Assembly: GCF_013745115.1 (NCBI RefSeq)
Contig: NZ_CP051151.1
Location: 930,001-994,000, forward strand
DNA from: Hujiaoplasma nucleasis
GTDB lineage: Bacteria; Bacillota_I; Bacilli_A; Izemoplasmatales; Hujiaoplasmataceae
Reading direction: 5' to 3'
DNA length: 64,000 bases
Below are positions 1,130-64,000 of the stretch, one piece after another. Within the stretch, counting starts at the first letter, position 1; each line of letters starts with the position of its first letter. The notes beneath the pieces are model-generated. The model saw only the letters and a program-made list of their open reading frames with translations, was not told the DNA's origin and searched no databases. A program made the position numbers and the translations under genes.

Positions 1130-1136
1130 AAAAAAT

Positions 1137-1163
1137 AATACCTTTGATCATTTCAAAGGTATT
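1137..1163. terminator. Bidirectional intrinsic terminator
   Basis: An 11-bp perfect stem (1137-1147 with 1153-1163) with a 5-nt loop is followed by a T-run, and A-rich sequence precedes it on the other side. It lies between the convergent apbE and Gx-transporter genes and can serve both. Confidence 0.85.
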
Positions 1164-1165
1164 TT

Positions 1166-1669: not shown

Positions 1670-1678
1670 TAAAATCCC

Positions 1679-2095: not shown

Positions 2096-2423
2096 CTTTT
2101 TGGACCCCTAACATGTGATGCATGATATTTTTAAGTATTTTCCATTCTTCAATCATTTCTTTTAAATAGGCTCTACCTAAAGGTGTTATTTTATAATAAC
2201 GACGTTTTCTCCCGTGACTTTTCTCGCCAAAATAAGAAACAATCAATTCTTTTGTTTCTAGTCTTTGGAGCACAGAGTAAAGTGTAGCTTCCTTGATGTT
2301 AAATAAACTATTTGATTTTTCTTTAATGACAGAGACCAATTCATAACCATACATATCTTTATCAGTTAAAAGATTTAAGATGATGGTATCAATATGTCCG
2401 CGAATAACATCAGAACTTATCAT
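2088..2423 (-). CDS. PadR family transcriptional regulator
   Basis: This 111-residue winged-helix protein has the PadR signature: DKDMYGYELVSVIKE near residues 22-36, TLYSVLQRLE, then GRKRRYYKITPLGRAYL. The length is typical of the short PadR class that lacks a long C-terminal dimerisation domain. The gene starts 6 nt after degV stops and overlaps the HAAS gene by 8 nt. It probably autoregulates the operon, but I did not identify a clear operator. Confidence 0.9.
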   Translation of the reverse strand: MISSDVIRGHIDTIILNLLTDKDMYGYELVSVIKEKSNSLFNIKEATLYSVLQRLETKELIVSYFGEKSHGRKRRYYKITPLGRAYLKEMIEEWKILKNIMHHMLGVQKDE

Positions 2424-2429
2424 AAATTT

Positions 2430-3287
2430 CTACTTTCTAGTTTTAATATAACCTATAGTAATCGCTCCTGGGCCAGAATGTGCACCCACAGCTGGAGTTA
2501 ATAAATAATCTTTAATTTCTTTATATTCTGGTCTAACTTCTAAAACTTGTTCTCTTACATATTGAGCAGTTTCTGGATTATTAGCATGAATGATAAATGG
2601 CTCAACATCAGTGTTTTCAGTTTCTTCTAAGAATTTTTCAATCACACGATTTACTGCTTTTTTAAATGTTCTAATTTTTTCAATACTAACAACTTTCCCT
2701 TCATTATTGATTTCTAATAAAGGTTTTATTTTTAATATATTTGCCATAAAAGCTTGAGCATTGGTTAATCTACCATTTTTTACTAAATATCTTAAGTCAT
2801 TGACCGCAAAATATATGTGATTGTTATCACGAATATATTCTAAGTCTTTGATGATTTCATCAATAGATTTTCCTTCTTGGTAAGCTTTATAGGCTTCAAA
2901 GATCATTTTACATTCAATATATCCTACAGACTTAGAGTTAAAAACATGAACATCTACGCCTTCAACCATTTTAGCTGCCATCATTGCATTATCATAAATT
3001 CCACTCATGCCTGATGAAATAGTCACAAATAAAATAGTATCGCAACCTTCATCTCTTAAAGTTTCATAAAACTCTAACATTTTTCCTGTAGATGCCATTG
3101 AAGTTCTTGGAAATAAACTTGAATCTTCCTCTAATTTATCATAAAATTTATCCGCTGTTAATTCTTCATAATCAACATATTCTTTATCGCCTAAAAGAAT
3201 AGTAGATCGTACGACCCTTACATCAATATTGTGATCGATATAATCGATCGCTGAATTTGTGCACACCATCAATCCTAATTTTTTCAT
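2430..3287 (-). CDS. DegV family fatty-acid-binding protein
   Basis: DegV/FakB proteins bind a fatty acid and, in Firmicutes, present it to the FakA kinase. This 285-residue copy has the family pattern: an SGMSGIYDNAMMAA segment near residues 90-105, the DLRYLVKNGRLTNAQAF motif near 160-178, and a C-terminal AVGAHSGPGAITIGY. It leads a four-gene operon and has its own promoter immediately upstream. A second, divergent DegV is encoded at 8305-9183. The ligand cannot be read from sequence. Confidence 0.9.
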   Translation of the reverse strand: MKKLGLMVCTNSAIDYIDHNIDVRVVRSTILLGDKEYVDYEELTADKFYDKLEEDSSLFPRTSMASTGKMLEFYETLRDEGCDTILFVTISSGMSGIYDNAMMAAKMVEGVDVHVFNSKSVGYIECKMIFEAYKAYQEGKSIDEIIKDLEYIRDNNHIYFAVNDLRYLVKNGRLTNAQAFMANILKIKPLLEINNEGKVVSIEKIRTFKKAVNRVIEKFLEETENTDVEPFIIHANNPETAQYVREQVLEVRPEYKEIKDYLLTPAVGAHSGPGAITIGYIKTRK

Positions 3288-3308
3288 AAATCCCCCTTAT
3301 TCCCTTCT

Positions 3309-3336
3309 ATTATAAATGAAGACTCTTATTTGTCAA
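3309..3336 (-). promoter_or_regulatory. Sigma-A-type promoter of the degV-padR operon
   Basis: On the minus strand a perfect TTGACA (3336-3331) and a perfect TATAAT (3314-3309) are separated by 16 nt. Transcription would start about 15 nt upstream of degV. The -35 box abuts the stop codon of the GGDEF gene. Confidence 0.8.
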
Positions 3337-4857
3337 TTATTCTTTATATCGAGCCTTCTTTTTTAAGGTTTCTTCTAGTTTATTCTTAGCTACTTCTCTT
3401 GTTACTTTCATTTGATACATATTAATATCGGCTTTAGACAATACTTGTGACATTTTTTCACCAGCTTCTTTAGCGTGGTAACCATAGGAAAATCCTATTT
3501 GCTTAAGAGGATCTTCATCTTTGGTTTCTTCTTGGATCATATTAAGAATATTTAATATATCTTTTTCGCTTTTATTGGTCGCAATAATTAAAAATTCATC
3601 TCCACCCATTCGGATAGGCAAAATATTTTGATCTTCCTCTGATAATTTATTTAATACAGAAGCAAATCTTTTTAATAAATCATCCCCCGCATGATGGCCA
3701 AAATAGTCATTGAATAATTTTAAACCATCTAAGTCAAATAAGATACAAGTATAATTTTCAATATTTTCGTGTTTAGAACGTATAGATTCTAAATAATTAC
3801 GATTATAGAGTTGAGTCATTAAATCATGGTTCATTAAATATTCCATATCATGGATATACTTTTGTATTTGTGTTTCGTCATAAAACAATATCATATGGGC
3901 TTGGTATTTGAAAAAAGGCAAATTAATGTTTTTTGTTTGCATATGGATATACATTTTATCACTATCATATTCTAAACCTTTAGAATCAGAATAGACAATG
4001 GCTTTTTCATGAATTATCATCATGAAATCATCCATAGGTATCCCTTCATTTAGTTTTATATTAAACTTATTTAACAATGATTTAGAAGCGGCCACGACTT
4101 CATCATGGTGATTGACAATCAAATACATTTCTCTTAAATTTTGTAAAACAAATTGATTGTTATTCATTTTTAAAATCAAACGGACATCACGAATATAGAA
4201 AATAAAATAAATTACCGAAGAAAATACAACATAAATGATCAAGGTTGGATCAATGGTAAATTGTTCAATAAAAACATGAATAAAGTTTAATATGATACCT
4301 ATGATCATTACAATAATGATTAACACAAAAGGAAAGGTGTCTTTGTATTTTTTTAAAGAACTGTACATCTTAAAGATAATTAAAATTAAAGATATCAAAA
4401 GTAATAAATAACAAATCACTGTGTGTATCAAAAAGAAGGTTCCAGTAGAAGCAGTTAAAATCATTTGAGCAGTAATGTCTTCTGAAAAAGTAATATCCAA
4501 AAATAATTGATGCCAATGATTTGTACTGGCAATACCAATCTCTATAAATAAAAACAACCATAAAGCTCCTATAAGAAATTTAGGAATTTTCATATCTAAA
4601 TATCTCATAAAAGCAACAACAGTCACTCCAGTCGCAAAAAATATAACTGGATACTTAACCAGTAACATAGGATATAAAATATAGGAATCCTCAATGACAT
4701 GGGTTAAACCAGTTATTGCTGCCCAGATAAATAAGGAAATGCTTAAGTATTTGAAATAAGTATATTTTTTACTTACTGAAAACAAATCAATTCTTACAAT
4801 AGGAAGAAAAGAAAGTATTCCAATAATGATGTATACAATCCAAAAATATACATTCAT
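3337..4857 (-). CDS. Membrane-bound diguanylate cyclase (GGDEF)
   Basis: This 506-residue protein has about seven membrane segments in the first 225 residues, resembling the 7TM sensor module of some histidine kinases. A PAS-like linker follows at about 235-335, then a GGDEF domain near 340-500. The catalytic motif is a canonical GGDEF (about residue 418), so cyclic-di-GMP synthesis is expected. The RxxD inhibitory site five residues before the motif is absent. It is monocistronic by context. The input signal is unknown. Confidence 0.88.
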   Translation of the reverse strand: MNVYFWIVYIIIGILSFLPIVRIDLFSVSKKYTYFKYLSISLFIWAAITGLTHVIEDSYILYPMLLVKYPVIFFATGVTVVAFMRYLDMKIPKFLIGALWLFLFIEIGIASTNHWHQLFLDITFSEDITAQMILTASTGTFFLIHTVICYLLLLISLILIIFKMYSSLKKYKDTFPFVLIIIVMIIGIILNFIHVFIEQFTIDPTLIIYVVFSSVIYFIFYIRDVRLILKMNNNQFVLQNLREMYLIVNHHDEVVAASKSLLNKFNIKLNEGIPMDDFMMIIHEKAIVYSDSKGLEYDSDKMYIHMQTKNINLPFFKYQAHMILFYDETQIQKYIHDMEYLMNHDLMTQLYNRNYLESIRSKHENIENYTCILFDLDGLKLFNDYFGHHAGDDLLKRFASVLNKLSEEDQNILPIRMGGDEFLIIATNKSEKDILNILNMIQEETKDEDPLKQIGFSYGYHAKEAGEKMSQVLSKADINMYQMKVTREVAKNKLEETLKKKARYKE

Positions 4858-27169: not shown

Positions 27170-28420
27170 CTAATAATCCAGCCCAACTTTTCCTAATAAA
27201 AAATCATACAAACCAATTGTAATAACTCCAAACTCATCACGTTTTGGCATTATATTATCCTTTACAATGATTACTTTTTTGAAGGAATCAGAGATATTTA
27301 ATAATGATTTTTCTTCTTGTTTTCTTTTTTCTATATTACTCATTTCATAAGCTGATTGAATATAATATTTTTCATTCCCTTTTTGTGCAATAAAATCAAC
27401 CTCTAGTTTTTTCTTAAGTGACTTACCTTCATGTTGCTCTCTAACTTCAACAACACCAACATCTATATTAAAACCACGTACTCTCAATTCATTGTAAATG
27501 ATATTTTCCATAATATGATTTTCTTCTTGCTGTCTAAAATTCAGTCTACCGTTCCTCAACCCTAAATCTGTAAAGTAATACTTACTTGGAGTTGAAATGT
27601 ACTTCTTACCTTTTACATCATACCGCATTGACTTCTCTACCAAAAATGAGTCTTCTAGATATGTTAAATACGATTTTATCGTTGGTTCTGTAACAGATAC
27701 TCCTTTCATACTTTTAAATGTATTTGAAAGTTTTTTAGGATTTGTAAGTGAACCAATACTTGATGATAATACATTCACCAATTCTTCTAATTCACTGATG
27801 TTTCTAATGTTATATCGATCAACAATATCACTAATATATACTTTATCAAATTGTTTCATTAAATAATTAGATTTTTCTTCATGCTCTGTAAAATTCAGGA
27901 TCAAAGGTAATCCACCATAAGTATAGTATTGATTCCATGCTTCATTTACGTCACCATCGAATACCGAAGTGAATTCTTTAAATGTTAGCGGATATACTCT
28001 TATTTCATCACTTCTTCCCCTAAACTCAGTAATTAAATCTTTTGAGAGAAACTTCGAGTTACTTCCTGTAACATATGTGTCTGTGTTTTTCATATGCAAC
28101 AAGCTATTTAAAACATCTTCAAACTCATCAACCATTTGTATTTCATCTAGCAAGATGTAATACATTTCATTATCTTTTATCCCTTCTTCAATTGCCTTTA
28201 ATAAATTATCTGGATTTCTCAATCCCTTATTTCTTCTATCATCTAACGCATATGTTATTATGTGGTTTTTATCAATACCATTATTAATTAAATAATCGTA
28301 ATACAAATTAAACAACAGATATGATTTACCAACTCTTCTCATACCCGTAATTACTTTTATCAATCCGTTATTTTTATGCCTGATGATTTTATCTAAATAC
28401 TCGTTTCTTTCAATAACCAT
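27170..28420 (-). CDS. AAA-family ATPase with DUF4143 (archaeal ATPase type)
   Basis: This 416-residue protein has Walker A GMRRVGKS near residue 26 and a Walker B-like LLDEIQMVD near 90. A DUF4143 C-terminal domain has the nuclease-like core EVDFIAQKGNEKYYIQSAY near 340. Such ATPases are common orphan or island genes, and several have been proposed to act in conflict or toxin-like roles. Its promoter is flanked by two copies of a GGGTA-TTTT-ACCC palindrome. The start has AGGTGAT upstream. Confidence 0.85.
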   Translation of the reverse strand: MVIERNEYLDKIIRHKNNGLIKVITGMRRVGKSYLLFNLYYDYLINNGIDKNHIITYALDDRRNKGLRNPDNLLKAIEEGIKDNEMYYILLDEIQMVDEFEDVLNSLLHMKNTDTYVTGSNSKFLSKDLITEFRGRSDEIRVYPLTFKEFTSVFDGDVNEAWNQYYTYGGLPLILNFTEHEEKSNYLMKQFDKVYISDIVDRYNIRNISELEELVNVLSSSIGSLTNPKKLSNTFKSMKGVSVTEPTIKSYLTYLEDSFLVEKSMRYDVKGKKYISTPSKYYFTDLGLRNGRLNFRQQEENHIMENIIYNELRVRGFNIDVGVVEVREQHEGKSLKKKLEVDFIAQKGNEKYYIQSAYEMSNIEKRKQEEKSLLNISDSFKKVIIVKDNIMPKRDEFGVITIGLYDFLLGKVGLDY

Positions 28421-38943: not shown

Positions 38944-39468
38944 TTAACCCGCTAGTAACATTAAGACAATAGTCAAAGGTATTAGTGCTATACCATACTT
39001 CAAAGCATCATTAAAATATCTCATTTTACTTATAGCAATCTTTGAGTTGATTGATATTTGAGAGAGAATCATTTCACGGGCTTTTTTTTCATCAACTTCC
39101 TTAGTTTCTTTAATAAAATCTTCATCATCCATTTCTGCAATTGATACAAAAGAGAATAGATTATCAGAAAAAATATCAACATTCTTTGTTCTTGCTATAA
39201 AAACAGATACTAAATTGAAGATTGTCAATCCAAGAATCACTAAATATGCCAAACCAAATACAATAACTATTGTAATTAGAGGTATACTTCCATTAACCAA
39301 TAATTCAGATAGTTTTCCATATGTACTAGCAGATAAGCCAACAATCAATCCAATAAATGCTACTAAAATAGAAGTTTTACTATCAGCTGCTCTTATCCAT
39401 GAGTTTACTATCTCGAGCATTCTTAATGAAGTTTCCTTATCAAATACATTCTCTACTCTATTTCCCAT
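38944..39468 (-). CDS. pycTM: PycTM-like membrane effector (Pycsar)
   Basis: Pycsar effectors sense a cyclic pyrimidine nucleotide made by a phage-triggered cyclase and damage the membrane. This 174-residue protein has the family pattern LEIVNSWIRAADSKTSILVA at about 17-36, membrane segments near 30-50 and 62-88, a cytosolic linker, and a C-terminal hydrophobic segment (152-172). It overlaps the cyclase gene by 16 nt, with AAGGAGG inside it. The family call rests on motif and context. Confidence 0.75.
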   Translation of the reverse strand: MGNRVENVFDKETSLRMLEIVNSWIRAADSKTSILVAFIGLIVGLSASTYGKLSELLVNGSIPLITIVIVFGLAYLVILGLTIFNLVSVFIARTKNVDIFSDNLFSFVSIAEMDDEDFIKETKEVDEKKAREMILSQISINSKIAISKMRYFNDALKYGIALIPLTIVLMLLAG

Positions 39469-40127
39469 GTTGCCTCCTTTATAATATATGTGTTTGGCAT
39501 GCTTGTTTGATATGGTTCACAGTACTCTTTAAACTTCTTATTTAAATGATCATATGTTTTAGAGTCAATTATTACTTGATTCTTTTCAGCTAATCCACAA
39601 AATTTTGATGCATAGTTTGTAATATCGCTCGGATAGGCCACTTCGCTACCATTATCAGTAGTTAATCTTGTTACATATACATGACCCGTACGAATCCCTA
39701 TTCCGCAACTTATTTCCCACTCTTTACTCAACAACGGATTCATCGATTCAGCTATATAAGTATGAATACTGAGTGCAGTATAAACTGCTCGTTGTCCTGA
39801 ATTTCCAGTTGAATCATTCGTAAAAGCACATAAAATGCCATCACCAACAATTTGTAAAATCATACCATTATTTTCATTAATCGCTTTCTTACAAAGTTTG
39901 GTATACATTTGATATATTTTTACCATTGTTTTTCGCCCAACTGTACTAGATAGAACTGTTGAACTTCTTATATCTATAAACATCAAGGATGTTTCAATAT
40001 TATATACTTTTTTACCACTTGGAATCTGATTTCGGTCCAAAAATCCGTTCTGATTAGTAACTTCAATCTTTCTGTCATAGATTTGTTTTAATTCATTTTT
40101 TAAAGAATCTAATTCATTCTGTTTCAT
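39453..40127 (-). CDS. pycC: Class III nucleotide cyclase, PycC-like (Pycsar)
   Basis: This 224-residue single-domain class III cyclase has both metal-binding aspartates (LMFIDIRSSTVLS near residue 48 and QIVGDGILCAF near 92) and an IGIRTGHVYV segment near 140. Stand-alone cyclases of this size next to a PycTM gene define Pycsar anti-phage systems, which make cCMP or cUMP. Which base is used cannot be read here. It lies 17 nt after a multi-TM gene and has a GGAGG site. Confidence 0.82.
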   Translation of the reverse strand: MKQNELDSLKNELKQIYDRKIEVTNQNGFLDRNQIPSGKKVYNIETSLMFIDIRSSTVLSSTVGRKTMVKIYQMYTKLCKKAINENNGMILQIVGDGILCAFTNDSTGNSGQRAVYTALSIHTYIAESMNPLLSKEWEISCGIGIRTGHVYVTRLTTDNGSEVAYPSDITNYASKFCGLAEKNQVIIDSKTYDHLNKKFKEYCEPYQTSMPNTYIIKEATWEIE

Positions 40128-50118: not shown

Positions 50119-50142
50119 AAACACATCAGTTTTGATGTGTTT
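50119..50142 (-). terminator. Terminator between nuclease-like moron and tape measure
   Basis: A 10-bp stem AAACACATCA/TGATGTGTTT with a 4-nt loop is followed by a T-rich tract on the minus strand, directly after the moron stop codon. Confidence 0.85.
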
Positions 50143-50926
50143 AATCTAGTTTTGTTATCAAGTATCCAATATAGACATTTAATTCATTAGATTTATATTT
50201 TATTTTGGCTTTATTGGTTTCTTTAAATTTCAAAGGAAATTCAATAATATCACCTGAACTTAACTCTTTATTTACACCAATAAATTTTAAATATTTTTTC
50301 AGGTCTCTTTTATTTGTTTCTAAAGAACTGGTTATAGTTTTATGAGTAACGAATTGATGAATGATAAATAGTGCAACATCTGACTTATTTAAATTTGCCT
50401 CAGTAATTGTTCCAATCAAACCTGAAAATAACTGATATCTTAATCCGCTAAACTCATCGTATGATAAATCATTATTATTACGATTCAGCGAATCAAAAAT
50501 TGCATCAAGTCTTAAATCTAAATTTGATTTTTTTCCTTTAGCTCTTGTATTAATAACATATTGATATTTATCTTTAATCAACTCAGCGTATTCTTCATTA
50601 CCTTTCGCTTCAATTCCAATTGTCATTTGCCCTTTGTTATATATTACTTTCTTAAAAAGAAGATCATGGTTTCTTGGTCCGCCTTTATAATTATCAAAAT
50701 ATGTTGTTGCCTCAAAATAGCCATCATTCAATTTAAATCCACTAAACTTTTCACTAATCATTTTATCAAATTCATTGTTATCTTCATTAAACCAATATCT
50801 ACAAAGTGACTCAGCACTTTTTCCTTCGCACCAATCTTTTTTCTTAGTTTTATTTTTTAAGAAGGCCTCTTTAATATCACCATAACTATCTACTTTAGAA
50901 TCTTTTTTCATAAAATACAAATTCAT
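50141..50926 (-). CDS. PD-(D/E)xK-like nuclease, phage moron
   Basis: This 261-residue protein interrupts the tail-gene order and carries its own promoter and terminator. GGPRNHDLLFKK followed by TIGIEAKGNEEYAEL (about residues 80-115) matches the D...ExK core of PD-(D/E)xK nucleases. The family is otherwise unknown. Such cargo often protects the lysogen from other phages or DNA. Confidence 0.6.
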   Translation of the reverse strand: MNLYFMKKDSKVDSYGDIKEAFLKNKTKKKDWCEGKSAESLCRYWFNEDNNEFDKMISEKFSGFKLNDGYFEATTYFDNYKGGPRNHDLLFKKVIYNKGQMTIGIEAKGNEEYAELIKDKYQYVINTRAKGKKSNLDLRLDAIFDSLNRNNNDLSYDEFSGLRYQLFSGLIGTITEANLNKSDVALFIIHQFVTHKTITSSLETNKRDLKKYLKFIGVNKELSSGDIIEFPLKFKETNKAKIKYKSNELNVYIGYLITKLD

Positions 50927-55402: not shown

Positions 55403-56606
55403 TTGTTTCTTCCTCCTTAGTACCGACTTGATATTGGTTTGCTTTATCTGCATCCACAAAGTTTAATGATTGAAGACGTTTATGGCCACCTTCTATTGGT
55501 TCTAGTCCTAATAAGGCTCTTGATTCATTAAGCGACATAATCCCTAGACTCATGAGTTTTTCTATGGCATTGACTTTTGTGTTCCACGAAGCATATTGTA
55601 ATCTTTCACTATAAAAAACTATTTGTTCTCCTCGTTCAAGTTGATTATCAGTTAATAAACCTAAAGAAAAAGCCTCGCTTAATTGAATAGCAAGAGGCTC
55701 TATGGTTGACTCATAAAATGAGTTATATTCATCTTCTGTATATTGACTTGTAAAGATTGGAACTGATACACCAAAGTAATCGGTTATTTTACTTTGTAAG
55801 AATTCTAAGGTATCTTTATCAATCATCTTTGGATCAACATCTAAAGGGATATATTCTGATTTCAAATCAATTGGAATAATTGAACTACCCTTTACATGTG
55901 TTGACTCTGATAATGCAGCATCAAATAGATCGCGTTGCTTTTTCTTGTCTGCTTCTGATAGCATGCCATTCATCTTTACAATACCCTTTATCTGCATGGA
56001 TGATTTTACAGCATTATCAATGCCTTGTAGCAAACTATCATTGATTGATATGGTTTTAAGAATAGCTTCATGATCACCAGATGATCCAGTCCCACCAAAG
56101 ATATCATTTTGTGCAAAGTGTCTTCTTAGATGAATGATGTTATCATATGGCAAGGTATAGGGTTTTCCATCTTCAAATATGAATTTAATGAAGTATGTAT
56201 CCACATCATCAACAATCATCTCTACTGTTACAGGTCTTAATGGATAAATCCCTTTAAGCTTACCAGTTTGTCTATCAAACTTTGGATAGATAAATGCATT
56301 ATCGTTTAACAAAAGTAAGGTTGTTGTTTTATAGATAAAATCATAAGGTGTCATTATTTCATTTGGTTTATATTTCAAAAGAAAAGACAGCCTACCTTTC
56401 TTCTCGGTTACTGTCTTATCGTTTTCTGTTTTTATATATCTTGGTTTGAGTTTCGCACATTGACTAGCGACTCTATCTATACAAATCTTTACCACATCAC
56501 TTTTAGAAATATTCGTTCCAAAGGGTGTGTAAAATTTATTAAGATTACTTGTTAACTGGATTGTATCAAATGATCCAGTTTTTTTCTTTCGTTTGAATAT
56601 TAACAT
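55386..56606 (-). CDS. Phage portal protein (HK97 family)
   Basis: This 406-residue protein has YDFIYKTTTLLLLNDNAFIY, YPLRPVTVEMIVDD, IIHLRRHFAQNDIFGGTG and ESRALLGLEPIEGGHKRL, all typical of HK97-type portals. It forms the dodecameric DNA gate. A moron lies between it and TerL. Confidence 0.92.
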   Translation of the reverse strand: MLIFKRKKKTGSFDTIQLTSNLNKFYTPFGTNISKSDVVKICIDRVASQCAKLKPRYIKTENDKTVTEKKGRLSFLLKYKPNEIMTPYDFIYKTTTLLLLNDNAFIYPKFDRQTGKLKGIYPLRPVTVEMIVDDVDTYFIKFIFEDGKPYTLPYDNIIHLRRHFAQNDIFGGTGSSGDHEAILKTISINDSLLQGIDNAVKSSMQIKGIVKMNGMLSEADKKKQRDLFDAALSESTHVKGSSIIPIDLKSEYIPLDVDPKMIDKDTLEFLQSKITDYFGVSVPIFTSQYTEDEYNSFYESTIEPLAIQLSEAFSLGLLTDNQLERGEQIVFYSERLQYASWNTKVNAIEKLMSLGIMSLNESRALLGLEPIEGGHKRLQSLNFVDADKANQYQVGTKEEETNEDNN

Positions 56607-56621
56607 AATTACCTCTTATAT

Positions 56622-57857
56622 TTATTGTTTCTTTAGAATTTTATCAACAATGTAATCTATTTCAAATTCAAGTTCTTCTGCTAAAAAATAACCGTTGCGA
56701 TAGTAAGCAACTTGCAAGTCTTTCACATGAGTGCAGTATCGTTCAAAAATACTATTTTCGCATAATTTTTTCAATACTATGAGAGACATAGCGGTACATA
56801 ATTTTTCTTCTTCCTCGCCTGCCATGGTTTTTGTAATGCCTTCAATTGAATAAAAAACATAATGACAAAGTTCATGCGCTAATTGAAAAATAATTTTTGC
56901 TTCATTTCCAAAATCATCAATACCTAGCTTAATGATTAATATCTGTTTTAATACAGGAGTAATTATTGGAGTATGTCCACAGTTTGCTTTTTCAACATTA
57001 TTACAGTTATCAATGAGTAGTGGATATTTATTCATGATCTTAGACCCAAATATTTGATTGAATTCTTTCATAACAATAGCGATTGTGTTGCTAAAAACAT
57101 TATACTTTCCAATGTTTGATAAGTTTCCATTTACTTCGTAATTAACATCATTTCTTTCATTGTTGATTTGATTCAAATTTTCTAATCCACCATAATATTT
57201 ATTTATTGTATCTAAATGCTGTATATTAAATTGCTCATACTCTTTGATGTCATCCCTATTTGCTAACCTTAATTTATCCGAGAATGAAACTTCGTATTTT
57301 TCATTAATGTATACAATAGCTTTATATACATTTTTACCAAGTGATATATAAGCATTAATTGTTTTGCCTATTATGATTTCTTCTTTAAGCATTAGAGAGA
57401 TACTTTCTGATACAACTAAGCTTAAGAAACCACTCATATTATCAAGTTCACTTTTATTTAGATTAAAACCGCTAGTTTTTAAAATATTTTCTACGACGAA
57501 TCTTGAAGTCTTAATAATTATTTCTTTATTTCTTTCAGAATTTATTTTATCAAATATGGAATCGTGTTTAGGTTTCCATGTTACAGTATTTCTAACGCTT
57601 TGAGGTCGATGAGCAGTTTGGTTTTTATGATTGTATTTTTTTTTAATTATTGGATCGTTTTTTTTAAGAGTAATTCCTTCATGTTTTCTGTTTTTAAGTA
57701 TTTTCTTTTTTTCATCTTCATACCTTTGCTTTATAGGTTTCCCAGATGAACTGAATCTAGCTTCCATAATAGCTTTACTATTTTCGTCCTTTGTTAATTT
57801 TTGATTTTTAGATAATGAGTTTTTCACGAGTGATAGTATTGATGATTTCTTAGCCAT
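56622..57857 (-). CDS. HExxH metalloprotein, phage moron
   Basis: This protein of about 411 residues is not a packaging gene. A basic disordered N-terminal third (about 1-100) precedes a zincin-like region with LAHELCHYVFYSIEG (HExxH) near residue 330 and GEEEEKLCTAM after it, a plausible third ligand. It has its own promoter overlapped by a perfect palindrome. ImmA/M78-like peptidase is the nearest idea. The start at 57857 has GGAGGG. Confidence 0.6.
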   Translation of the reverse strand: MAKKSSILSLVKNSLSKNQKLTKDENSKAIMEARFSSSGKPIKQRYEDEKKKILKNRKHEGITLKKNDPIIKKKYNHKNQTAHRPQSVRNTVTWKPKHDSIFDKINSERNKEIIIKTSRFVVENILKTSGFNLNKSELDNMSGFLSLVVSESISLMLKEEIIIGKTINAYISLGKNVYKAIVYINEKYEVSFSDKLRLANRDDIKEYEQFNIQHLDTINKYYGGLENLNQINNERNDVNYEVNGNLSNIGKYNVFSNTIAIVMKEFNQIFGSKIMNKYPLLIDNCNNVEKANCGHTPIITPVLKQILIIKLGIDDFGNEAKIIFQLAHELCHYVFYSIEGITKTMAGEEEEKLCTAMSLIVLKKLCENSIFERYCTHVKDLQVAYYRNGYFLAEELEFEIDYIVDKILKKQ

Positions 57858-57873
57858 ATAAATACCCTCCACA

Positions 57874-57896
57874 ATAGTTAATTAACTATAATTATA
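57874..57896 (-). promoter_or_regulatory. Moron promoter with 16-bp palindrome
   Basis: An extended -10 TGGTATAAT (57899-57891) is followed after one base by the perfect palindrome ATAGTTAATTAACTAT (57889-57874) over the expected start point. The -35 is poor. Repressor control is likely. Confidence 0.65.
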
Positions 57897-57917
57897 CCAT
57901 TGATTAAGTAAAAAAAA

Positions 57918-59564
57918 TCATGATAACATATTTTCGTAGTCAGTTTTATACCTGTTTAATACTACATAGGCAATTATCATTGCAACCGTTCCATCGATAC
58001 GCTTGTACTTCGAGTTCAGTTTCGATGGTTGGATGTTTCCATTCAAATCCACCTTAGCTTGTGTATTAGCAATGCACCATTTCATAATTGGATTATTATT
58101 ATAGTTTACTAAGTTATTTTTTAAATCAGCTTCTAATATCTTCATAGGTTCAGATAGAGAATATATACCTTGTCTGACCTTTTCCATATTGAACCCTAAG
58201 TCTTCCATCTCTTTTATCCAGTACTGAGAGTTCCATGGATCGTACCCAACCCATAAAGGTCTAATACCATAGGTTTGAATTATCTTCATAAACCATTGTG
58301 TGACTAAACTAAAGTCATTTTGATTGCCTTCAGTTAGAGTAATGAATCCTTTTTTAATCCAAATGTCATATGGAACATTATCTTCTTTGATTCTTTTTCC
58401 CACAACTTCACTTGGCATGAAGAAATGTGAGATAACATATTTTTGATTGCTGTCACGTTTTTGAATGATTAAAACTGCAGCTGTAAGGTCTGTTGTTGAT
58501 GACAAATCAACACCACCTACAGCATAAGAGTCTCTTAAATCATCGATTGAGTATTTAGCTTCATTGTTTAAATCCTCAAATGATAGCCATGAGCCAGAGT
58601 CAGATTGTTTTATATTAAAGTCTTTACATAGCATGGTGACTCTAGTAGACAAGTCATGTTTTGATTTATTCATAACATCTTCTAAGTAATTAGTTAGCTT
58701 TACCAATCCAAGGCTCGGGTTTGATTTTTGCCAAGTCTTTTGATCATCATATATTTCTTTTGTTGAGTCTTGTGTATATAGCCAAGGTAGAACACGTTCA
58801 TCTTCTATTTCACCTTTTAACATCTTTCTAACATAAGATAGTTTATTATCTAAAAAACCACCAACGGTAGTCCCTTCGGTGGTTATGACAAATATGAGTG
58901 GTTCTTTTTTAGTTGATTGAGATTGCTTGATTGCATCATACACTTTAGAATCAGTCATTTCATGCACTTCATCAATACAGCCAACTTCGATATTGTATCC
59001 ATCCTTATTTCTTGATTGAGCTGATAGTTTCTTTATCTTATTCTTTGTCTTTGGAGAATAGATGTGATAGATATTCTTCTTACTTCTTGTGTCTTTTGAT
59101 AAGGCAGGCGATTGTTCTCTCATATTGTTTATCTCTTCAAAGAGTATATTCGCTTGTTCAGTTGTGTTAGAAGCACAAACAATATCAACACCGCCTCTTG
59201 ATAAAAAGAACTCAGCTAAATCTATCCCAGCAACAAAGGTTGTCTTACCATTCTTTCTAGCAATGAGTAATATAACTTCATTAAATCTTCTAAGTTTTGA
59301 ATCAGATATTTTAAAGCCATATGCAGTTTGGATAAGTGCTTTTTCCCAAAGTTCTAATATAAAAGGCTTACCATTAAATGGTGACTTTGTGTGCTTACAG
59401 AATGTTTCAATAAAGTCTATTCTTAGATTGCCTGGTTTTTCATCAAAATAATATCTAGGATTATCAAGATCCTTTATCAGTTGATCTAGTTCTTTTCTTA
59501 ACTCTTCTCCAGCGACAATGTTGCCATCAATGATTTCCTTATAGTATTCAATTAAATAGTTCAT
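57918..59564 (-). CDS. terL: Phage terminase large subunit
   Basis: This 548-residue packaging motor has the ATPase motifs IARKNGKTTFVAG (Walker A, near residue 108) and VGCIDEVHEM (Walker B, near 200). The nuclease domain carries AVGGVDLSSTTDLTA near 340, GYDPWN near 440 and a terminal DGTVAM. It overlaps terS by 4 nt (ATGA). Confidence 0.94.
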   Translation of the reverse strand: MNYLIEYYKEIIDGNIVAGEELRKELDQLIKDLDNPRYYFDEKPGNLRIDFIETFCKHTKSPFNGKPFILELWEKALIQTAYGFKISDSKLRRFNEVILLIARKNGKTTFVAGIDLAEFFLSRGGVDIVCASNTTEQANILFEEINNMREQSPALSKDTRSKKNIYHIYSPKTKNKIKKLSAQSRNKDGYNIEVGCIDEVHEMTDSKVYDAIKQSQSTKKEPLIFVITTEGTTVGGFLDNKLSYVRKMLKGEIEDERVLPWLYTQDSTKEIYDDQKTWQKSNPSLGLVKLTNYLEDVMNKSKHDLSTRVTMLCKDFNIKQSDSGSWLSFEDLNNEAKYSIDDLRDSYAVGGVDLSSTTDLTAAVLIIQKRDSNQKYVISHFFMPSEVVGKRIKEDNVPYDIWIKKGFITLTEGNQNDFSLVTQWFMKIIQTYGIRPLWVGYDPWNSQYWIKEMEDLGFNMEKVRQGIYSLSEPMKILEADLKNNLVNYNNNPIMKWCIANTQAKVDLNGNIQPSKLNSKYKRIDGTVAMIIAYVVLNRYKTDYENMLS

Positions 59565-59881
59565 TCACTTGCCTTTTTAAGAAATTCATCAAACGCATCA
59601 TCTCCGTCATCAACTTGTGTTCCTAGTATTGTATTTAGAGTTTTAATCACCGTACCATAAGAGTTGACCATCTTTGTGTAGTATTTTGCTGCTTCAGTTT
59701 GACGTTGTGCACCTTTGTTTGATATTTGAATGGCACCATATTTCCGTATTTGGTCTTGTAGTTTATCAAGTTCTACTTTCATAAAAGCTGCTTGATATAT
59801 TAAATTGTCTACTAATTCTTTCTTTGATTCATCAACCAAAGAAAAAAGCGACTTTAGCCGCTTATATTCTATATTAATCAT
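59561..59881 (-). CDS. terS: Phage terminase small subunit (P27-like)
   Basis: This 106-residue helical protein directly before TerL has VDNLIYQAAFMKVELDKLQD and a QTEAAKYYTKMVNSYGTVIK segment, like P27-type small terminases. It recognises the packaging site. No strong ribosome site is seen. Confidence 0.8.
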   Translation of the reverse strand: MINIEYKRLKSLFSLVDESKKELVDNLIYQAAFMKVELDKLQDQIRKYGAIQISNKGAQRQTEAAKYYTKMVNSYGTVIKTLNTILGTQVDDGDDAFDEFLKKASE

Positions 59882-59890
59882 ATTTTTAAG

Positions 59891-60979
59891 TCATTCATAG
59901 ATTTTTTGTTTAGCATCTCCTGTATTATTAGATATAAAATTGCAGTTAGGATAATTGGAACATCCTATGAAAATATGTCCATCACTTTTTGCGAATCTGA
60001 CCTTCAAGGGAGAATCACACCTTGGACAAACCCAATTAACAGTACTAGATTCTACAAGTTCATAATCTTCTTTATAGAATGTTTTCCCAAATACCACTGC
60101 AGAAATAGATTTTGGTTTAGCTATTTTAAGAGTATCAATCACTTCAAATAAAGTTGTACCAGTAGTAACTATATCATCAATAAGAAGAAGATGTTTGTTC
60201 TCTAACAATTGTGCATTTTGATTTAGTTGGAACTTCCCTTTTACTAATTCTTGTCTTTCTTGTAATGAACTAGATGCTTTTAATGAACCATAAGTTTCTT
60301 TCAGATCTACAGCATCAATAGTTCTAACAAGTTCCAAAACATCCTTATCCCGTTTAGCAGGAACAGTAATTATATAATCATATTTAATGTTATTTCTTTC
60401 AAGAAATAATTCTATCAAATCTTTATAGAAATGCTTAGAATTATCATTCCCCCACTTATTGTAAAGTAGCCTATTAGAATAGTAGTCAAGATTAGAATGA
60501 TGATGCTTAGAACTAAAATATCTACCTAAAATAAAAACCTTATAATTGCCTTTATCATCTAAATACTCTTCAATTGATACATTAGGATTAGTCATTTCAT
60601 GTAACATAAGTGATGTGTTTTCTACATTACTAGTTGAGCTAAAATTATATTTTTCACCTATCAAAGTAAAAATATTACCATTGATAAAATCCTCAACATT
60701 CCGTACTTTTGCATCAATGTAGGAATCCTTTTCAAACCAAAATAAATTATCAGTAACTTGAATAATAGTTGGATGATAATACTTATCATTATACACTAAC
60801 CTAAATTTTGGAGCGTCGCTCGAACTGATATAAATTGAATTTAGTTCAGTTTGCAATTTTTCAACACATACACTATCTCCTGAAACTTCTAAAACTTTAT
60901 TCCCAAACCTATTATATTTTTCTTTAATCAATGACACACCCTTATTTGAAATTGTATCTAAGTCAACATAAATAATCAT
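59891..60979 (-). CDS. Phosphoribosyltransferase with topoisomerase-type zinc finger
   Basis: This 362-residue protein has a unique N-terminal half, a type I PRTase domain with the PRPP loop LLIDDIVTTGTTLFEV near residue 265, and a C-terminal zinc finger (CPRCDSPLKVRF...GCSNYPNC). ComF is the nearest known relative of the core. It overlaps the DprA-like gene by 4 nt, so the two likely act together. The location next to terS marks it as phage cargo. Confidence 0.78.
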   Translation of the reverse strand: MIIYVDLDTISNKGVSLIKEKYNRFGNKVLEVSGDSVCVEKLQTELNSIYISSSDAPKFRLVYNDKYYHPTIIQVTDNLFWFEKDSYIDAKVRNVEDFINGNIFTLIGEKYNFSSTSNVENTSLMLHEMTNPNVSIEEYLDDKGNYKVFILGRYFSSKHHHSNLDYYSNRLLYNKWGNDNSKHFYKDLIELFLERNNIKYDYIITVPAKRDKDVLELVRTIDAVDLKETYGSLKASSSLQERQELVKGKFQLNQNAQLLENKHLLLIDDIVTTGTTLFEVIDTLKIAKPKSISAVVFGKTFYKEDYELVESSTVNWVCPRCDSPLKVRFAKSDGHIFIGCSNYPNCNFISNNTGDAKQKIYE

Positions 60980-61869
60980 AACTGTATCTCACTCATCAAT
61001 CCTTTTAACTCTTCAAAACTATTGAACGAATATATCTTGTTATACTCCGTTCTAAATTTTGAAGGCCACGAGTTGTTTGGGTTTGAAAACACATTATAAG
61101 GAACAAGCAAGTATCTATCATTTCTCAATGTATGTCTGGCTTGAGAAATTGTACCGGATGTATCAGATGCTTCCATAACGATTGATGCTTTTGAAAATAA
61201 TGACATTACAAAATTTCTCCTAGTAAAACTCCATCTTTTAGTAGATTCAAAATATGGCATCTCAGAAATTAAACAACCAGTATCAGATACATATTTTTGT
61301 AATTCTCTATTTTCTTTTGGGTAAGACTTATTTAATGGTGTTCCAATAACACCGATCAATTTATTATATTCATATTCTTTACAAACTTTATGAGCTATGC
61401 CATCAATCCCTTTTGCAAGACCTGACACTATAGTAACATCACGATTTATAAGAAACCTAACTATTCTATTTGTGTTATTTATAGCATTATCACTAGGATT
61501 TCTTGTGCCAACAATACTAATAGCTCTTGAATGGTTATTTAATAATCCAACATTTCCTTTAGCAAAAAAACACAATGGATATTTATCAACATCAAACATG
61601 TATTTTGGATAATTCTCATTTTTATAAAAAATAACAGTCTCATCGCTACTCATTTCATCCAGAAAATGATTTACATTATCTAGCAATTTTCGGTCATACT
61701 TATCATACAATTTCATTGAATCTGAATCAAAATCAAATATACATTCTTCAAATGGCTTTAATAGTAAAAAGGACTCATTTTTAATATATTCAATATGAGC
61801 TTTATTTCTATTAAAATTACAAATTTGTAAAACTATCAAATAATTCACAATACCTATTCTATTTTCCAT
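60976..61869 (-). CDS. DprA/Smf-like Rossmann protein
   Basis: This protein of about 297 residues has the DprA core: AISIVGTRNPSDNAINN, VTIVSGLAKGIDGIAHKVC, GVIGTPLNKSYPKENREL and VMEASDTSGTISQARHTLRN. Chromosomal DprA loads RecA on incoming DNA, but this copy is in a prophage and coupled to a phosphoribosyltransferase. Smf/SLOG domains also appear in nucleotide-centred conflict systems. GGTGAT selects ATG 61869. Confidence 0.82.
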   Translation of the reverse strand: MENRIGIVNYLIVLQICNFNRNKAHIEYIKNESFLLLKPFEECIFDFDSDSMKLYDKYDRKLLDNVNHFLDEMSSDETVIFYKNENYPKYMFDVDKYPLCFFAKGNVGLLNNHSRAISIVGTRNPSDNAINNTNRIVRFLINRDVTIVSGLAKGIDGIAHKVCKEYEYNKLIGVIGTPLNKSYPKENRELQKYVSDTGCLISEMPYFESTKRWSFTRRNFVMSLFSKASIVMEASDTSGTISQARHTLRNDRYLLVPYNVFSNPNNSWPSKFRTEYNKIYSFNSFEELKGLMSEIQL

Positions 61870-61881
61870 ATAAATCACCAT

Positions 61882-62023
61882 AATAGATTATATCATTATA
61901 TTTGCACTTTATAAAGTGTTCAAGAAACCTCGATTTTCAAAATTTTCGCCTCGTGTATTTTAAGCGTCACCCTACGCGGTACCCTTAAATCTAACATCAT
62001 TCTGTAGCCGGGGGACGTATTAT
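61882..62023. other. GC-richer intergenic segment, candidate cos/packaging region
   Basis: This 142-bp gap contains an unusually GC-rich core (61964-62017) with CGTCACCCTACGCGGTACCC and CCGGGGGACG. HK97-type cos phages carry the cohesive-end site between HNH and terS, which fits the position. An extended -10-like ATGATATAAT lies near 61889-61898. No gene is seen. Confidence 0.4.
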
Positions 62024-62680
62024 TCAATAAATATTATCATTATAACCCCATCTTTGAGGATGTTTTGGATAACAAATTTTGCCACTAGATATTCCTTTAC
62101 ACTTTGATTTATACCTTGCTACTTCCTTAAGGACTATAGAATTCTTACAAGCAAAATTTAATATCTCTTTAATTCGAGCATCATAATATCCCCTAAAAAT
62201 ACCATTGGCATTACCACAAGCCAAAATGACATCAGGCTTTAATTCTTTATATTTATTATAGAGTTTTTCAATAACTTCAATATTTTTTAAATATCTGACA
62301 GCATCATTTGCTACTGGATTAGATTTTGGGTTTGACCTTTTCACAAATCCATAGTGCGAATTAATATTTCTTGCCACCGAATCATAATAAGGATACAAGT
62401 TCAACAAAAATATATCTGTATACCCTTTTTTCTTAGCTAGAGTTATGGCTTTCGTGGTAGTTATATCTAAGAACTTATCAGTGTAATTTTTTGTTTTTTT
62501 CAAATGATACCCTTTAAAGGATTCACTAGGGTTTTTCATAATAATAAAGACAATTTTTTTTCTCTTTTTTCTCTTTATTTTAAAGTACAAATAATACCTA
62601 TTCGCAAAAATTTTCCTTGGCCGATAATCAATATGTTTTAAATTGATAAAATTCGGAATTGTACAAGCCATATCAATCAT
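62024..62680 (-). CDS. DUF1643 domain protein
   Basis: This 218-residue protein has the DUF1643 pattern: VFIIMKNPSESF (family NPS), DIFLLNLYPYYDS, VILACGNANG and a terminal YPKHPQRWGY. The family is common in phages and has no established reaction. It overlaps the upstream nuclease-like gene by 8 nt. Confidence 0.8.
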   Translation of the reverse strand: MIDMACTIPNFINLKHIDYRPRKIFANRYYLYFKIKRKKRKKIVFIIMKNPSESFKGYHLKKTKNYTDKFLDITTTKAITLAKKKGYTDIFLLNLYPYYDSVARNINSHYGFVKRSNPKSNPVANDAVRYLKNIEVIEKLYNKYKELKPDVILACGNANGIFRGYYDARIKEILNFACKNSIVLKEVARYKSKCKGISSGKICYPKHPQRWGYNDNIY

Positions 62681-63752
62681 TGACTTTCTTGATTAGATTT
62701 TTAAAAAAATCTTCAATAACATTATCAATATCACTATCAATAAACTCGTGTCCGCCAAATCTATAAATTTCATATCCATGAAGTTTCATTTTTCTATCAT
62801 AACCGACCATTTCTGCGTATTTTTTTGGTGAAGGTTTCCCACCTTCTGAATAATGCTGAACCCCATCAATCTCTATAATTATTCTTCTACCAGCATATAA
62901 CATTAGAAAATCCATTCTCTGATGAATTAGCCTTTTTTCACCAAATAACTCTTTTATTGTCTTGGGATCGTAATGTAAATATACTTGCGGAAGCAAAGCA
63001 GGCAAATCAAAATCATTTTTTACAATTTGTTTATAATAAATATCAAAGAGTTTAATTTCGACTTCATTTCCTTTAATTGATTCTATAAGTCTAGGAAATA
63101 ACTTTTCTTCACTCTTATCTTTCCACCAATTTATTAAATCATTAATACTCAAACTCGAGTTATCAATATGTCTATCATAAATCAAAGAATATTTTTCATT
63201 CTTAACTATTTGTATGTTGTTCTCTAAAGCATCTTCTAGAACTATCTCAGGTTTCAATGTTGAAGCAAATATAATATTTTTAATATTACCATGTTTAAAA
63301 CTCTTGTCTAACTTAAAAATTGGCTCGTAATCTACTGTTTTAAATGGTTTTTGATAACCAGTAATTTTACTGCCTCCACTTTCACATAACTGTGGATCCA
63401 TAAACTCAATAAAATCTATATACGTTTGATTTATAACGAATGTTTGATTGACATTTGAAATTTGTTTTAGCTTATGAATAATACTGATAATAAAAATAAG
63501 TTCTCTGCTCTCATGAGCATTATAATGGATTGATTCCGTATCGGGATTATACATGTTGTGTGTTCTACCTTTATAAGATAAAAAAGATATTAAACTATCT
63601 AATTTCGAGTGTAGAATAGCAAGTATATCCCTAATTTCATTAGGGAAACTATCATAGATTTGATTATATTTTTCGTCAATCAAATTACCACTGTTACTTA
63701 GTTGCTTACGAATATCTTGTAAAGCAATCGAATAAGTTTTTTTATCAATCAT
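62673..63752 (-). CDS. DUF559-like nuclease domain protein, phage cargo
   Basis: This 359-residue protein has a helical N-terminal part (ALQDIRKQLSNSGNLIDEKY onwards). Its C-terminal domain has the core RMDFLMLYAGRRIIIEIDG then VQHYSEGGKPSPKKYAEMVG and YDRKMKLHGYEIYRFGGHEF, the Vsr/DUF559 type of PD-(D/E)xK nuclease. AbiJ-like abortive-infection proteins have a similar layout, but I cannot confirm that. AGAGG precedes the ATG. Confidence 0.7.
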   Translation of the reverse strand: MIDKKTYSIALQDIRKQLSNSGNLIDEKYNQIYDSFPNEIRDILAILHSKLDSLISFLSYKGRTHNMYNPDTESIHYNAHESRELIFIISIIHKLKQISNVNQTFVINQTYIDFIEFMDPQLCESGGSKITGYQKPFKTVDYEPIFKLDKSFKHGNIKNIIFASTLKPEIVLEDALENNIQIVKNEKYSLIYDRHIDNSSLSINDLINWWKDKSEEKLFPRLIESIKGNEVEIKLFDIYYKQIVKNDFDLPALLPQVYLHYDPKTIKELFGEKRLIHQRMDFLMLYAGRRIIIEIDGVQHYSEGGKPSPKKYAEMVGYDRKMKLHGYEIYRFGGHEFIDSDIDNVIEDFFKNLIKKVND

Positions 63753-63803
63753 TCTAATACCTCTTTTTTATAATTATACCAAAAACAAATTATAAAAACG
63801 AGG

Positions 63804-64000
63804 CTATCTAGAAATTAAGTTCCCCTCTTTATCAAATTGCTGTTGATTAGAGAAACGCTTGTGTTCTTTATTATGACATTTCTTACATAAGAGTTCTAAG
63901 TTATTTTGTTTCAAACTAATATTTGTATCACCAATATTATTTAATGTGAGACTTTTCTTATGATGAACTTCTTCACCTAATGCACCACATCTCTCGCATC
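63804..64000 (-). CDS. HNH endonuclease, 5' end outside window
   Basis: The 65 visible codons read CERCGALGEEVHHKKSLT, LKQNNLELLCKKCHNKEHKR and end FDKEGNLISR. They carry both zinc CxxC pairs and the catalytic HH. Small HNH genes beside terminase are needed for packaging in many HK97-type cos phages. The start lies beyond the window. Confidence 0.9.
   Translation of the reverse strand, partial: CERCGALGEEVHHKKSLTLNNIGDTNISLKQNNLELLCKKCHNKEHKRFSNQQQFDKEGNLISR

What the first reader, a model, noticed from the sequence alone, without database searches (positions are those of the whole stretch)
59891..63752. Prophage cargo block: nuclease, DUF1643, DprA-like and phosphoribosyltransferase between HNH and terS
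Seen: four minus-strand genes, with 8-nt and 4-nt overlaps within two pairs, inserted where HK97-type phages normally keep HNH next to terS. Known: DprA/Smf belongs to the SLOG superfamily, proposed by comparative genomics to act in nucleotide-centred conflict systems; DUF559/Vsr nucleases recur in defence islands. Inference: DprA-like plus PRTase may make or sense a nucleotide-derived signal, and the DUF559 nuclease may be an effector. The fused zinc finger is unusual for a PRTase.
Basis: partly seen in the sequence, partly recalled or inferred. Interest (0 to 1): 0.62.

Follow-up and report, generated by a model that had tools for sequence, protein, structure and literature searches.

The report
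Phage docking site for swappable defence genes
The four genes are two separate sets of probable anti-virus genes parked by a bacterial virus on either side of a conserved DNA element beside its packaging genes, a spot where related viruses each carry different cargo.

Summary
The four genes are real and correctly placed, but they are two cassettes, not one system. A conserved GC-rich noncoding element (window 62017-61925, putative cos site) separates DUF559+DUF1643 on the HNH side from DprA+PRTase on the terS side. The DprA-PRTase pair is of the known ShosTA/PsyrTA kind (DprA-like antitoxin, phosphoribosyltransferase toxin); such pairs recur in phages, and phiOH2 also carries one just before its terminase. 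The Zn ribbon is recurrent, not odd. DUF559+DUF1643 recurs in two related phage contigs without DprA-PRTase. In 80 relatives of this phage (terL 84-96% identical) the HNH-terS gap runs from 450 to 4575 nt and the terL-portal gap from 10 to 1693 nt, while five of seven other junctions are nearly fixed. The 183 slot ORFs fall into 115 clusters, including Lamassu, Shedu, bSEFIR and AbiH. The HNH-side slot opens with a conserved extended -10 promoter inside an inverted repeat with co-varying arms. In read-through RNA this repeat would hide the cargo's ribosome-binding site; promoter-started RNA would leave it open. This suggests cargo on in the prophage and off in late lytic transcripts. That switch and the cos reading are inference.

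The parts
63804..64000 (-). HNH endonuclease, backbone gene; continues to genome 994088 (94 aa)
   Evidence: MetK-HNH distance -10 in 50 of 50 relatives
63760..63803 (-). Slot-1a leader: inverted repeat (CCTC 63803-63800 pairs with GAGG 63763-63760, plus 11 pairs) around an extended -10 promoter TTTGGTATAAT (63783-63773); the 3' arm holds the Shine-Dalgarno of the DUF559 gene
   Evidence: sequence; conservation; co-variation; folding
62673..63752 (-). DUF559-like (Vsr/PD-(D/E)XK type) nuclease candidate with long unassigned N-terminus, cassette 1
   Evidence: DUF559 0.0013, below cut-off; 79-80% identical copies in L151 and L152
62024..62680 (-). DUF1643 protein, cassette 1
   Evidence: 4e-8; 72% identical in L151 and L152
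61925..62017 (-). Conserved GC-rich noncoding element, putative cos; core GGGTACCGCGTAGGG 61984-61970
   Evidence: nhmmer 5.6e-12 in the window; found in 50 of 51 HNH-bearing relatives, always between HNH and terS; exact core match
61895..61923 (-). Promoter-like TTGAAC-17-TATAAT of cassette 2 with perfect 14-bp palindrome CACTTTATAAAGTG (61918-61905) in the spacer
   Evidence: promoter count in the region is no higher than in shuffles
60976..61881 (-). DprA-like protein, ShosA type (probable start 61869)
   Evidence: PADLOC ShosA 2e-63; PDB 9vzo ShosA 2e-23; tree
59891..60979 (-). Phosphoribosyltransferase toxin candidate, ShosT/PsyrT-like: poorly matched N-terminal domain, PRTase core with intact LLLIDDIVTTGTTL loop, C-terminal Zn ribbon
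59561..59881 (-). Small terminase subunit (by position; PHROG 1066 of unknown function)
   Evidence: touches terL in all 80 relatives
57918..59564 (-). Large terminase subunit
   Evidence: PHROG 9, 1.8e-143
56622..57872 (-). Slot-2 cargo: protein with a metallopeptidase-like HELCH motif (motif recognised from memory) between terL and portal
   Evidence: no family except a weak NCBIfam hit; relatives at 62-64% in L205 and L170
55386..56606 (-). Portal protein, end of slot 2
   Evidence: PHROG 12, 1.3e-63

Best explanation
The block is the cargo region of a temperate HK97-type phage at its packaging genes. A conserved noncoding element, most likely the cos site, splits it into slot 1a (HNH side, here DUF559+DUF1643) and slot 1b (terS side, here DprA+PRTase). 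A third slot lies between terL and portal. Shown: the slots are hypervariable in relatives, reassort independently, and carry several known defence genes. Inferred: the DprA-PRTase pair works like ShosTA. The DprA-like protein restrains a PRTase that wrecks the purine nucleotide pool when infection disturbs it, stopping an incoming phage at the cost of the cell. Inferred: DUF559+DUF1643 is a second, independent defence pair. Inferred: slot 1a cargo is expressed in the lysogen from a backbone promoter lying inside an inverted repeat. Late read-through RNA folds that repeat and hides the Shine-Dalgarno, whereas RNA started at the promoter lacks the 5' arm and is translated. Inferred: cargo is exchanged through recombination at the DNA ends made at cos.
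For: ShosA 2e-63, and PDB 9vzo 'DprA-like antitoxin protein ShosA' level with the best hit. DprA next to PRTase in 8 of 13 phage regions viewed. The tree puts the window DprA in an 11-row clade (100/96) with 8 other PRTase-linked DprAs and two of untested neighbourhood. The host has no other DprA. Slot distances: HNH-terS 450-4575 with 45 distinct values in 51 loci and terL-portal 10-1693 with 44 distinct in 78; MetK-HNH -10 in 50 of 50, terS-terL -4 to 3 in 80, portal-protease 162-192 in 55. 183 ORFs in 115 clusters, 72 singletons. 13 of 31 individually scanned cargo proteins match PADLOC at 1e-4, including an adjacent LmuA+LmuB pair, SduA, bSEFIR and AbiH. Element in 50 of 51. 26 locus pairs share 1b but not 1a, and 4 share 1a but not 1b. 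TGnTATAAT 48 times in 4,000 nt of leader against 15 in 583,220 nt of backbone. Arms co-vary: 0 of 20,000 permutations as low, 30 of 20,000 with 8 group representatives. SD unpaired 0.19 in read-through, 0.39 with the 5' part shuffled, 0.61 promoter-started.
Against: The PRTase matches ShosT and PsyrT only weakly and over part of its length (8.4e-6, 5.1e-6). The ShosA model also rings in housekeeping DprA (10 of 14 control genomes). The deeper split between PRTase-linked and housekeeping DprA is poorly supported (80/9). PADLOC control: 2 of 10 chromosomal proteins also match, one of them strongly, so the enrichment is modest. No DprA-PRTase pair was found in the 80 relatives. DUF559 is just below its Pfam cut-off, and neither cassette-1 protein matches PADLOC. 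Type 2 leaders (7 distinct) are no better hidden than shuffles (p 0.69); in L218 and L219 the repeat does not cover the SD. A DNA operator would also give co-varying arms. No cos cleavage was shown, and a test at contig ends found nothing. Relatedness of the 80 contigs inflates all counts.
Confidence: 0.66

Rival explanations
1. One four-gene defence system: DprA senses phage DNA, the PRTase makes or alters a nucleotide signal, and DUF559 (with DUF1643) is the nuclease effector.
For: All four are adjacent and co-directional; SLOG-type proteins occur in nucleotide-centred conflict systems (recalled).
Against: Each pair is found without the other: DUF559+DUF1643 in L151 and L152, DprA+PRTase in phiOH2 and other phages. 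The conserved element and a separate promoter-like site lie between them.
Confidence: 0.06
2. DprA and PRTase are competence-type helpers (DprA/ComF) of use to the phage or host for DNA uptake or recombination, with no defence role.
For: DprA family fold; the DprA-like protein may still bind DNA and aid recombination, as reported for ShosA.
Against: Below the dprA and comF curated cut-offs; PRTase fused to extra domains including a Zn ribbon; conserved PRTase adjacency in phages; host lacks any other DprA.
Confidence: 0.08
3. The slot-1a repeat is a DNA operator overlapping the cargo promoter, bound by a phage repressor, rather than an RNA hairpin that hides the Shine-Dalgarno.
For: Arms flank the -10 with dyad symmetry; in L218 and L219 the repeat is near-perfect and does not reach the SD.
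Against: 31 of 33 distinct leaders carry CTC in the 5' arm, opposite the SD; 36 of 414 arm pairs are G-U, which helps RNA but not DNA symmetry; arm sequences differ widely between phages; real 5' parts hide the SD better than shuffled ones in 29 of 33.
Confidence: 0.3
4. The element at 62017-61925 is not cos but another fixed feature, such as a replication origin, a terminator/promoter region for terS, or a recombination site.
For: It contains hairpin-like T/A-rich stretches and abuts terS in 14 of 50 loci.
Against: Single copy in each phage locus, fixed between HNH and terS, GC-rich in an AT-rich genome, next to HNH and terminase genes, where cos lies in HK97-type phages (recalled); also present in a terL-less island of the same genome and beside a second locus on a viral contig, as expected of a shared packaging site.
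Confidence: 0.3

Closest known systems
ShosTA / PsyrTA toxin-antitoxin defence systems (incl. the DprA-PRTase system of P2-like phages, Rousset et al. 2022, PMC9122126)
   Same: Adjacent DprA-like and PRTase genes; ShosA model 2e-63; carried by phages; DprA first, as in P2_4C9; the Pf phage PfAC02a ShosT also has PRTase plus Zn ribbons, with a HAD domain.
   Different: PRTase matches the ShosT and PsyrT models only in its core; its N-terminal domain got no Pfam match; 33% identity to its closest relative found; activity untested.
[quoted passage not shown] passages read)
   Same: Diverse defence genes exchanged next to a conserved packaging site; DprA-PRTase is one of the cargoes there as well; the authors speculate about recombination at cos ends.
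   Different: Here cargo lies on both sides of the element plus a third slot between terL and portal, in a low-GC HK97-type lineage, and slot 1a has a backbone promoter/hairpin leader.
Tab/anti-Tab between small and large terminase genes (PMC10884400, passages read) and Tai upstream of the packaging module (PMC11364771, passages read)
   Same: Defence genes in the packaging region; Tab has its own promoter against the late operon.
   Different: Single defence families, not a multi-slot docking region; in phage JBD26 tab is on the opposite strand, whereas 166 of 183 slot ORFs here lie on the late strand.
Alternative transcripts with hidden ribosome-binding sites, e.g. phage T4 gene e (recalled); Gifsy-1 IsrK (abstract read)
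   Same: Translation depends on which transcript isoform is made.
   Different: IsrK acts in trans; here the proposed switch is in cis and serves exchangeable cargo.

Membership tests
ShosTA / PsyrTA | DprA-like antitoxin gene | tested here: met
   ShosA PDLC03961 2e-63; PDB 9vzo ShosA 2e-23; caution: the model also rings in housekeeping DprA
ShosTA / PsyrTA | PRTase toxin matching the family models | tested here: inconclusive
   ShosT 8.4e-6 and PsyrT 5.1e-6, PRTase core only; the phiOH2 partner likewise matches PsyrT at 6.1e-12
ShosTA / PsyrTA | The two genes adjacent and co-oriented, also in relatives | tested here: met
   4-nt overlap; six distinct adjacent pairs among fetched loci, window included; 7 of 12 phage regions viewed, plus phiOH2
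ShosTA / PsyrTA | PRTase toxic, DprA-like protein neutralises, phage protection | not testable with these tools
   needs bench work
Competence DprA (TIGR00732) / ComF (TIGR00201) | Score above the curated cut-off | tested here: not met
   144.9 vs 191.15 and 31.2 vs 233.55 bits
cos-proximal phage defence hotspot (P2/P4 kind) | Variable cargo between fixed backbone genes | tested here: met
cos-proximal phage defence hotspot (P2/P4 kind) | Cargo includes known defence systems | tested here: met
   13 of 31 cargo proteins at 1e-4, control 2 of 10
cos-proximal phage defence hotspot (P2/P4 kind) | Adjacent to the cos site | tested here: inconclusive
   conserved single element in 50 of 51 loci; cleavage not shown; contig-end test negative
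DUF559 nuclease | Match above the Pfam cut-off | tested here: not met
   19.0 vs 20.6 bits; D...ExD-like residues seen by eye, motif recalled

The most novel reading that the evidence does not exclude
A plug-in dock for immunity genes: cargo dropped directly behind the phage's own HNH gene falls under a resident promoter and a self-masking leader, so any incoming defence gene is translated in the lysogen but not from the late lytic transcript. Cargo on the two sides of cos is swapped independently, and satellite-like islands (one at 617 kb in the same chromosome) share the packaging element and trade cargo with the phage.
Probability: 0.35. Interest if true: 0.78.

Novelty: new variant of a known kind. 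Interest (0 to 1): 0.6.

Why it matters
It turns an odd gene block into a map of a phage immunity dock in a little-studied low-GC lineage. Any gene in slots 1a, 1b or 2 of this lineage becomes a defence candidate: 72 of 115 clusters are singletons and 18 of the 31 proteins scanned singly have no PADLOC match. The leader offers a simple, testable answer to how a temperate phage carries toxic defence genes inside its late operon without poisoning its own lytic cycle.

Tried and rejected
Structure prediction of the PRTase (3-row alignment) and the DUF559 protein (2-row) failed: mean pLDDT 48.4 and 32.8. No fold search was made on them.

Single-protein scans of viral contigs with P0001 and P0002 found no relatives. 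The genome-contig scan with the PRTase alignment returned 80 generic PRTases, none with a DprA neighbour within 3 kb on the same strand; they were dropped as non-members. Of seven other genomes matching P0001 in the phylum sample (392 genomes), two have the DprA neighbour and five do not within the fetched flanks.

A search for HNH at the far end of six contigs, meant to test whether contigs end at cos, found nothing. Most of the 72 stretches with the 14-base element core that lack genes of this lineage are probably chance matches. The promoter count in 56500-64000 (53 found, 48.9 in shuffles) is not evidence by itself. P0003 and P0004 have no match in phage records at 1e-3.

Papers: PMC9122126, PMC12593503, PMC10732053, PMC10884400, PMC11364771 and PMC12829572 were read as found passages only; PMC4825925 as abstract and section list; other search hits as listings. 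Pu et al. 2025 (PMC11961720) is not held and is cited through the review passage. The T4 gene e precedent, HNH-near-cos in HK97-type phages, and the PD-(D/E)XK and HELCH motifs are recalled.
Full report
OBSERVATION. The four ORFs, their strand and their 8-nt and 4-nt overlaps are as described. The window ends inside HNH. The genome (G000, one contig of 1.81 Mb; window = C1:930001-994000) continues with HNH, MetK, a ParB-MTase and recombinases (names by eye). Pfam gives PRTase plus Zn ribbon, DNA_processg_A, DUF1643 and a sub-threshold DUF559.

DPRA-PRTASE PAIR. PADLOC calls the DprA-like protein ShosA (2e-63) and the PRTase weakly ShosT and PsyrT (8.4e-6, 5.1e-6). The ShosA model also rings in 10 of 14 control genomes, so it is not diagnostic alone. 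Other tests point the same way. Both proteins fall well below the dprA and comF cut-offs. The best solved-structure matches are a DprA (8zva, 1.8e-23) and the ShosA antitoxin (9vzo, 2e-23), ahead of 3uqz (1.4e-19). The host has no other DprA, and the 13 listed genus, family and order relatives have no ShosA-model match at 1e-50. Adjacent DprA-PRTase pairs occur in G446 (33% and 45% identity to the window pair), G318, G407, phiOH2 and IMGVR_UViG_2547132099. Of 12 phage regions viewed (36 records matched), 7 have a PRTase next to DprA (Riah, Mana, P2_4C9, Vasanti, Bosnia, PfAC02a, SopEPhi). In the other 5 DprA has other neighbours: topA-like genes directly or one gene on in three, yrdC in one, and no PRTase in the fifth, as expected of chromosomal dprA. 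phiOH2 carries its pair immediately before the terminase genes, with one 70-aa ORF between. In a 46-row tree the window DprA joins G446 (100/100) inside an 11-row clade (100/96) made of nine PRTase-linked DprAs (window included) and two rows, L014 and L022, for which no PRTase was seen in the short flanks. The overall PRTase-linked label needs one change, but the branch setting it off is weak (80/9).

LITERATURE ON THE PAIR. A DprA-PRTase system in the P2 cos-proximal hotspot protects against T7 and lambda (PMC9122126, passages). A review states that ShosT acts as phosphoribosyltransferase and pyrophosphatase, disturbs purine metabolism and leads to DNA duplications and cell death, that ShosA binds DNA and counters it, and that T7 Gp0.7 is a trigger (PMC12593503, passage; primary paper not held). 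The window PRTase keeps the LLLIDDIVTTGTTL loop and the cysteines of the ribbon. The Zn ribbon is shared: PfAC02a 2.1e-12, phiOH2 3.7e-5, G446 0.0026.

TWO CASSETTES, NOT ONE. The terL protein found 292 relatives in viral contigs, of which the best 80 were kept (L140-L219, 84-96% identity). DUF559 and DUF1643 occur together in L151 and L152 (79-80% and 72%) with no DprA or PRTase there. DprA and PRTase occur in none of the 80 at tblastn 1e-6. An ~90-nt noncoding element lies between HNH and terS in 50 of 51 HNH-bearing loci (all but L178). The model was built from 11 of these, so 39 of the other 40 count as found; 8 contigs without HNH also have it, and 21 without HNH do not. In the window it lies at 62017-61925, exactly between DUF1643 and DprA. 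Slot 1a (HNH to element) is never empty: 0 of 50 are under 200 nt. Slot 1b (element to terS) is under 60 nt in 14 of 50 and at least 150 nt in 36 of 50.

HYPERVARIABLE SLOTS. Junction distances: ParB-MTase to next gene 52-63 (n=17); next pair -10 to -9 (n=20); next -48 to 281 (n=34); next to MetK 30-2998 (n=34; median 33, a few outliers); MetK-HNH -10 (n=50); HNH-terS 450-4575 (n=51, 45 distinct); terS-terL -4 to 3 (n=80); terL-portal 10-1693 (n=78, 44 distinct); portal-protease 162-192 (n=55). The 183 slot ORFs make 115 clusters, 72 of them singletons, with 166 of 183 on the late strand. Ninety-four cluster representatives were scanned as a set. Thirty-one were scanned one by one or as first member: 13 of 31 match PADLOC at 1e-4 (1, 5 of 10, 4 of 10, 3 of 10, some weak). 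Strong named ones are LmuA+LmuB side by side in L186, SduA in L148, bSEFIR in L193 and AbiH in L161. Control: 2 of 10 chromosomal proteins match, one to a candidate family at 398 bits, so the excess is modest. Slots reassort: 26 locus pairs share a 1b cluster but not 1a, 4 share 1a but not 1b, and 5 share slot 2 but not slot 1. One family (DUF2971/PDC-S31) is found in 1a, 1b and slot 2. The window itself shares 1a but not 1b with L152. Many contigs are related, so these are counts and not independent events.

SLOT-1A LEADER. Directly after the HNH stop, 39 of 52 sequences (51 loci plus window) carry TTTGnTATAAT, 9 carry TGTTATAAT-like motifs, and 4 neither. TGnTATAAT occurs 48 times in 4,000 nt of leader against 15 times in 583,220 nt of backbone, same strand. 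In the window the repeat spans 63803-63760 with the -10 at 63778-63773; CCTC pairs with the Shine-Dalgarno GAGG. In 33 distinct type-1 leaders the two arms fit each other better than swapped arms (-8.42 vs -6.76 kcal/mol; 0 of 20,000 permutations; 30 of 20,000 using 8 group representatives). The SD is unpaired 0.19 in read-through RNA, 0.39 with the 5' part shuffled and 0.61 in promoter-started RNA (29 and 31 of 33 in that direction). Type 2 (n=7) shows the second contrast only. Mean folding z is -1.7, several leaders are near zero, and in L218 and L219 the repeat misses the SD. A transcript-dependent translation switch is my preferred reading; a DNA operator is the rival. Cassette 2 has a separate promoter-like site with a perfect 14-bp palindrome.

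PUTATIVE COS. The element is GC-rich in an AT-rich genome, single-copy in each locus and fixed by HNH and terS. The same core occurs twice in the host chromosome: in this prophage and at 617008-617022. The second copy (nhmmer 3.4e-11) lies at one end of an island with a replication-type protein, excisionase-like and tyrosine integrase genes, two serine recombinases, a reverse transcriptase, AbiE-like genes, a HipA-like and an Mrr-like protein (names by eye). The chromosome holds only one terL of this kind. A viral contig also has two copies 34.8 kb apart, the second beside AbiE-like, SNF2-helicase and methyltransferase genes. This resembles satellites that share a helper's packaging site, but packaging was not shown.

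KNOWN AND NEW. Defence hotspots next to cos (P2/P4) and defence genes by the terminase (Tab, Tai) are in print. My searches showed no description of this lineage's three slots or of the leader; subscription papers are mostly missing from that library. The block is therefore filed as a new variant of a known kind.

Noticed in passing
window 38944-40127 (minus): Pycsar pair in the same prophage: cyclase PycC (2.6e-30) and effector PycTM (3.2e-26).
   Followed up: partly
L286 9949-20000 and L287 1-11000 (genome 617-638 kb): terL-less island with the same packaging-like element, integrase and excisionase-like genes, two serine recombinases, a reverse transcriptase (retron-like by eye), AbiE-like, HipA-like and Mrr-like genes; possible phage satellite or remnant.
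   Followed up: partly
L272 1-7701 (IMGVR_UViG_3300000351_000079, second element copy at 54702): Second copy of the element 34.8 kb from the phage copy, between AbiEii-like and SNF2-helicase/methyltransferase genes, with no HNH, terS or terL match beside it.
   Followed up: partly
L004 8406-12594 (minus): Two DNA methyltransferase-like genes and an HNH-type nuclease in a row in the same prophage, likely a restriction-modification cassette (by eye).
   Followed up: no
window 50141-50926 (minus): DUF6946 protein (1.7e-19) sitting just upstream of the tail tape-measure-like gene, another possible cargo spot.
   Followed up: no
window 27170-28420 (minus): Chromosomal gene matching the PADLOC candidate family PDC-S01 at 398 bits, met as a control.
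   Followed up: no
L160 6020-6577 and one other slot representative: DUF1643 probably also appears in slot 1a apart from DUF559 (cluster of three; Pfam DUF1643 in 2 of 94 representatives), so DUF1643 itself may be recurrent defence cargo.
   Followed up: no
L004 4075-5214 (minus): The phage backbone carries its own S-adenosylmethionine synthetase-like gene (MetK), conserved in 50 relatives next to HNH.
   Followed up: partly
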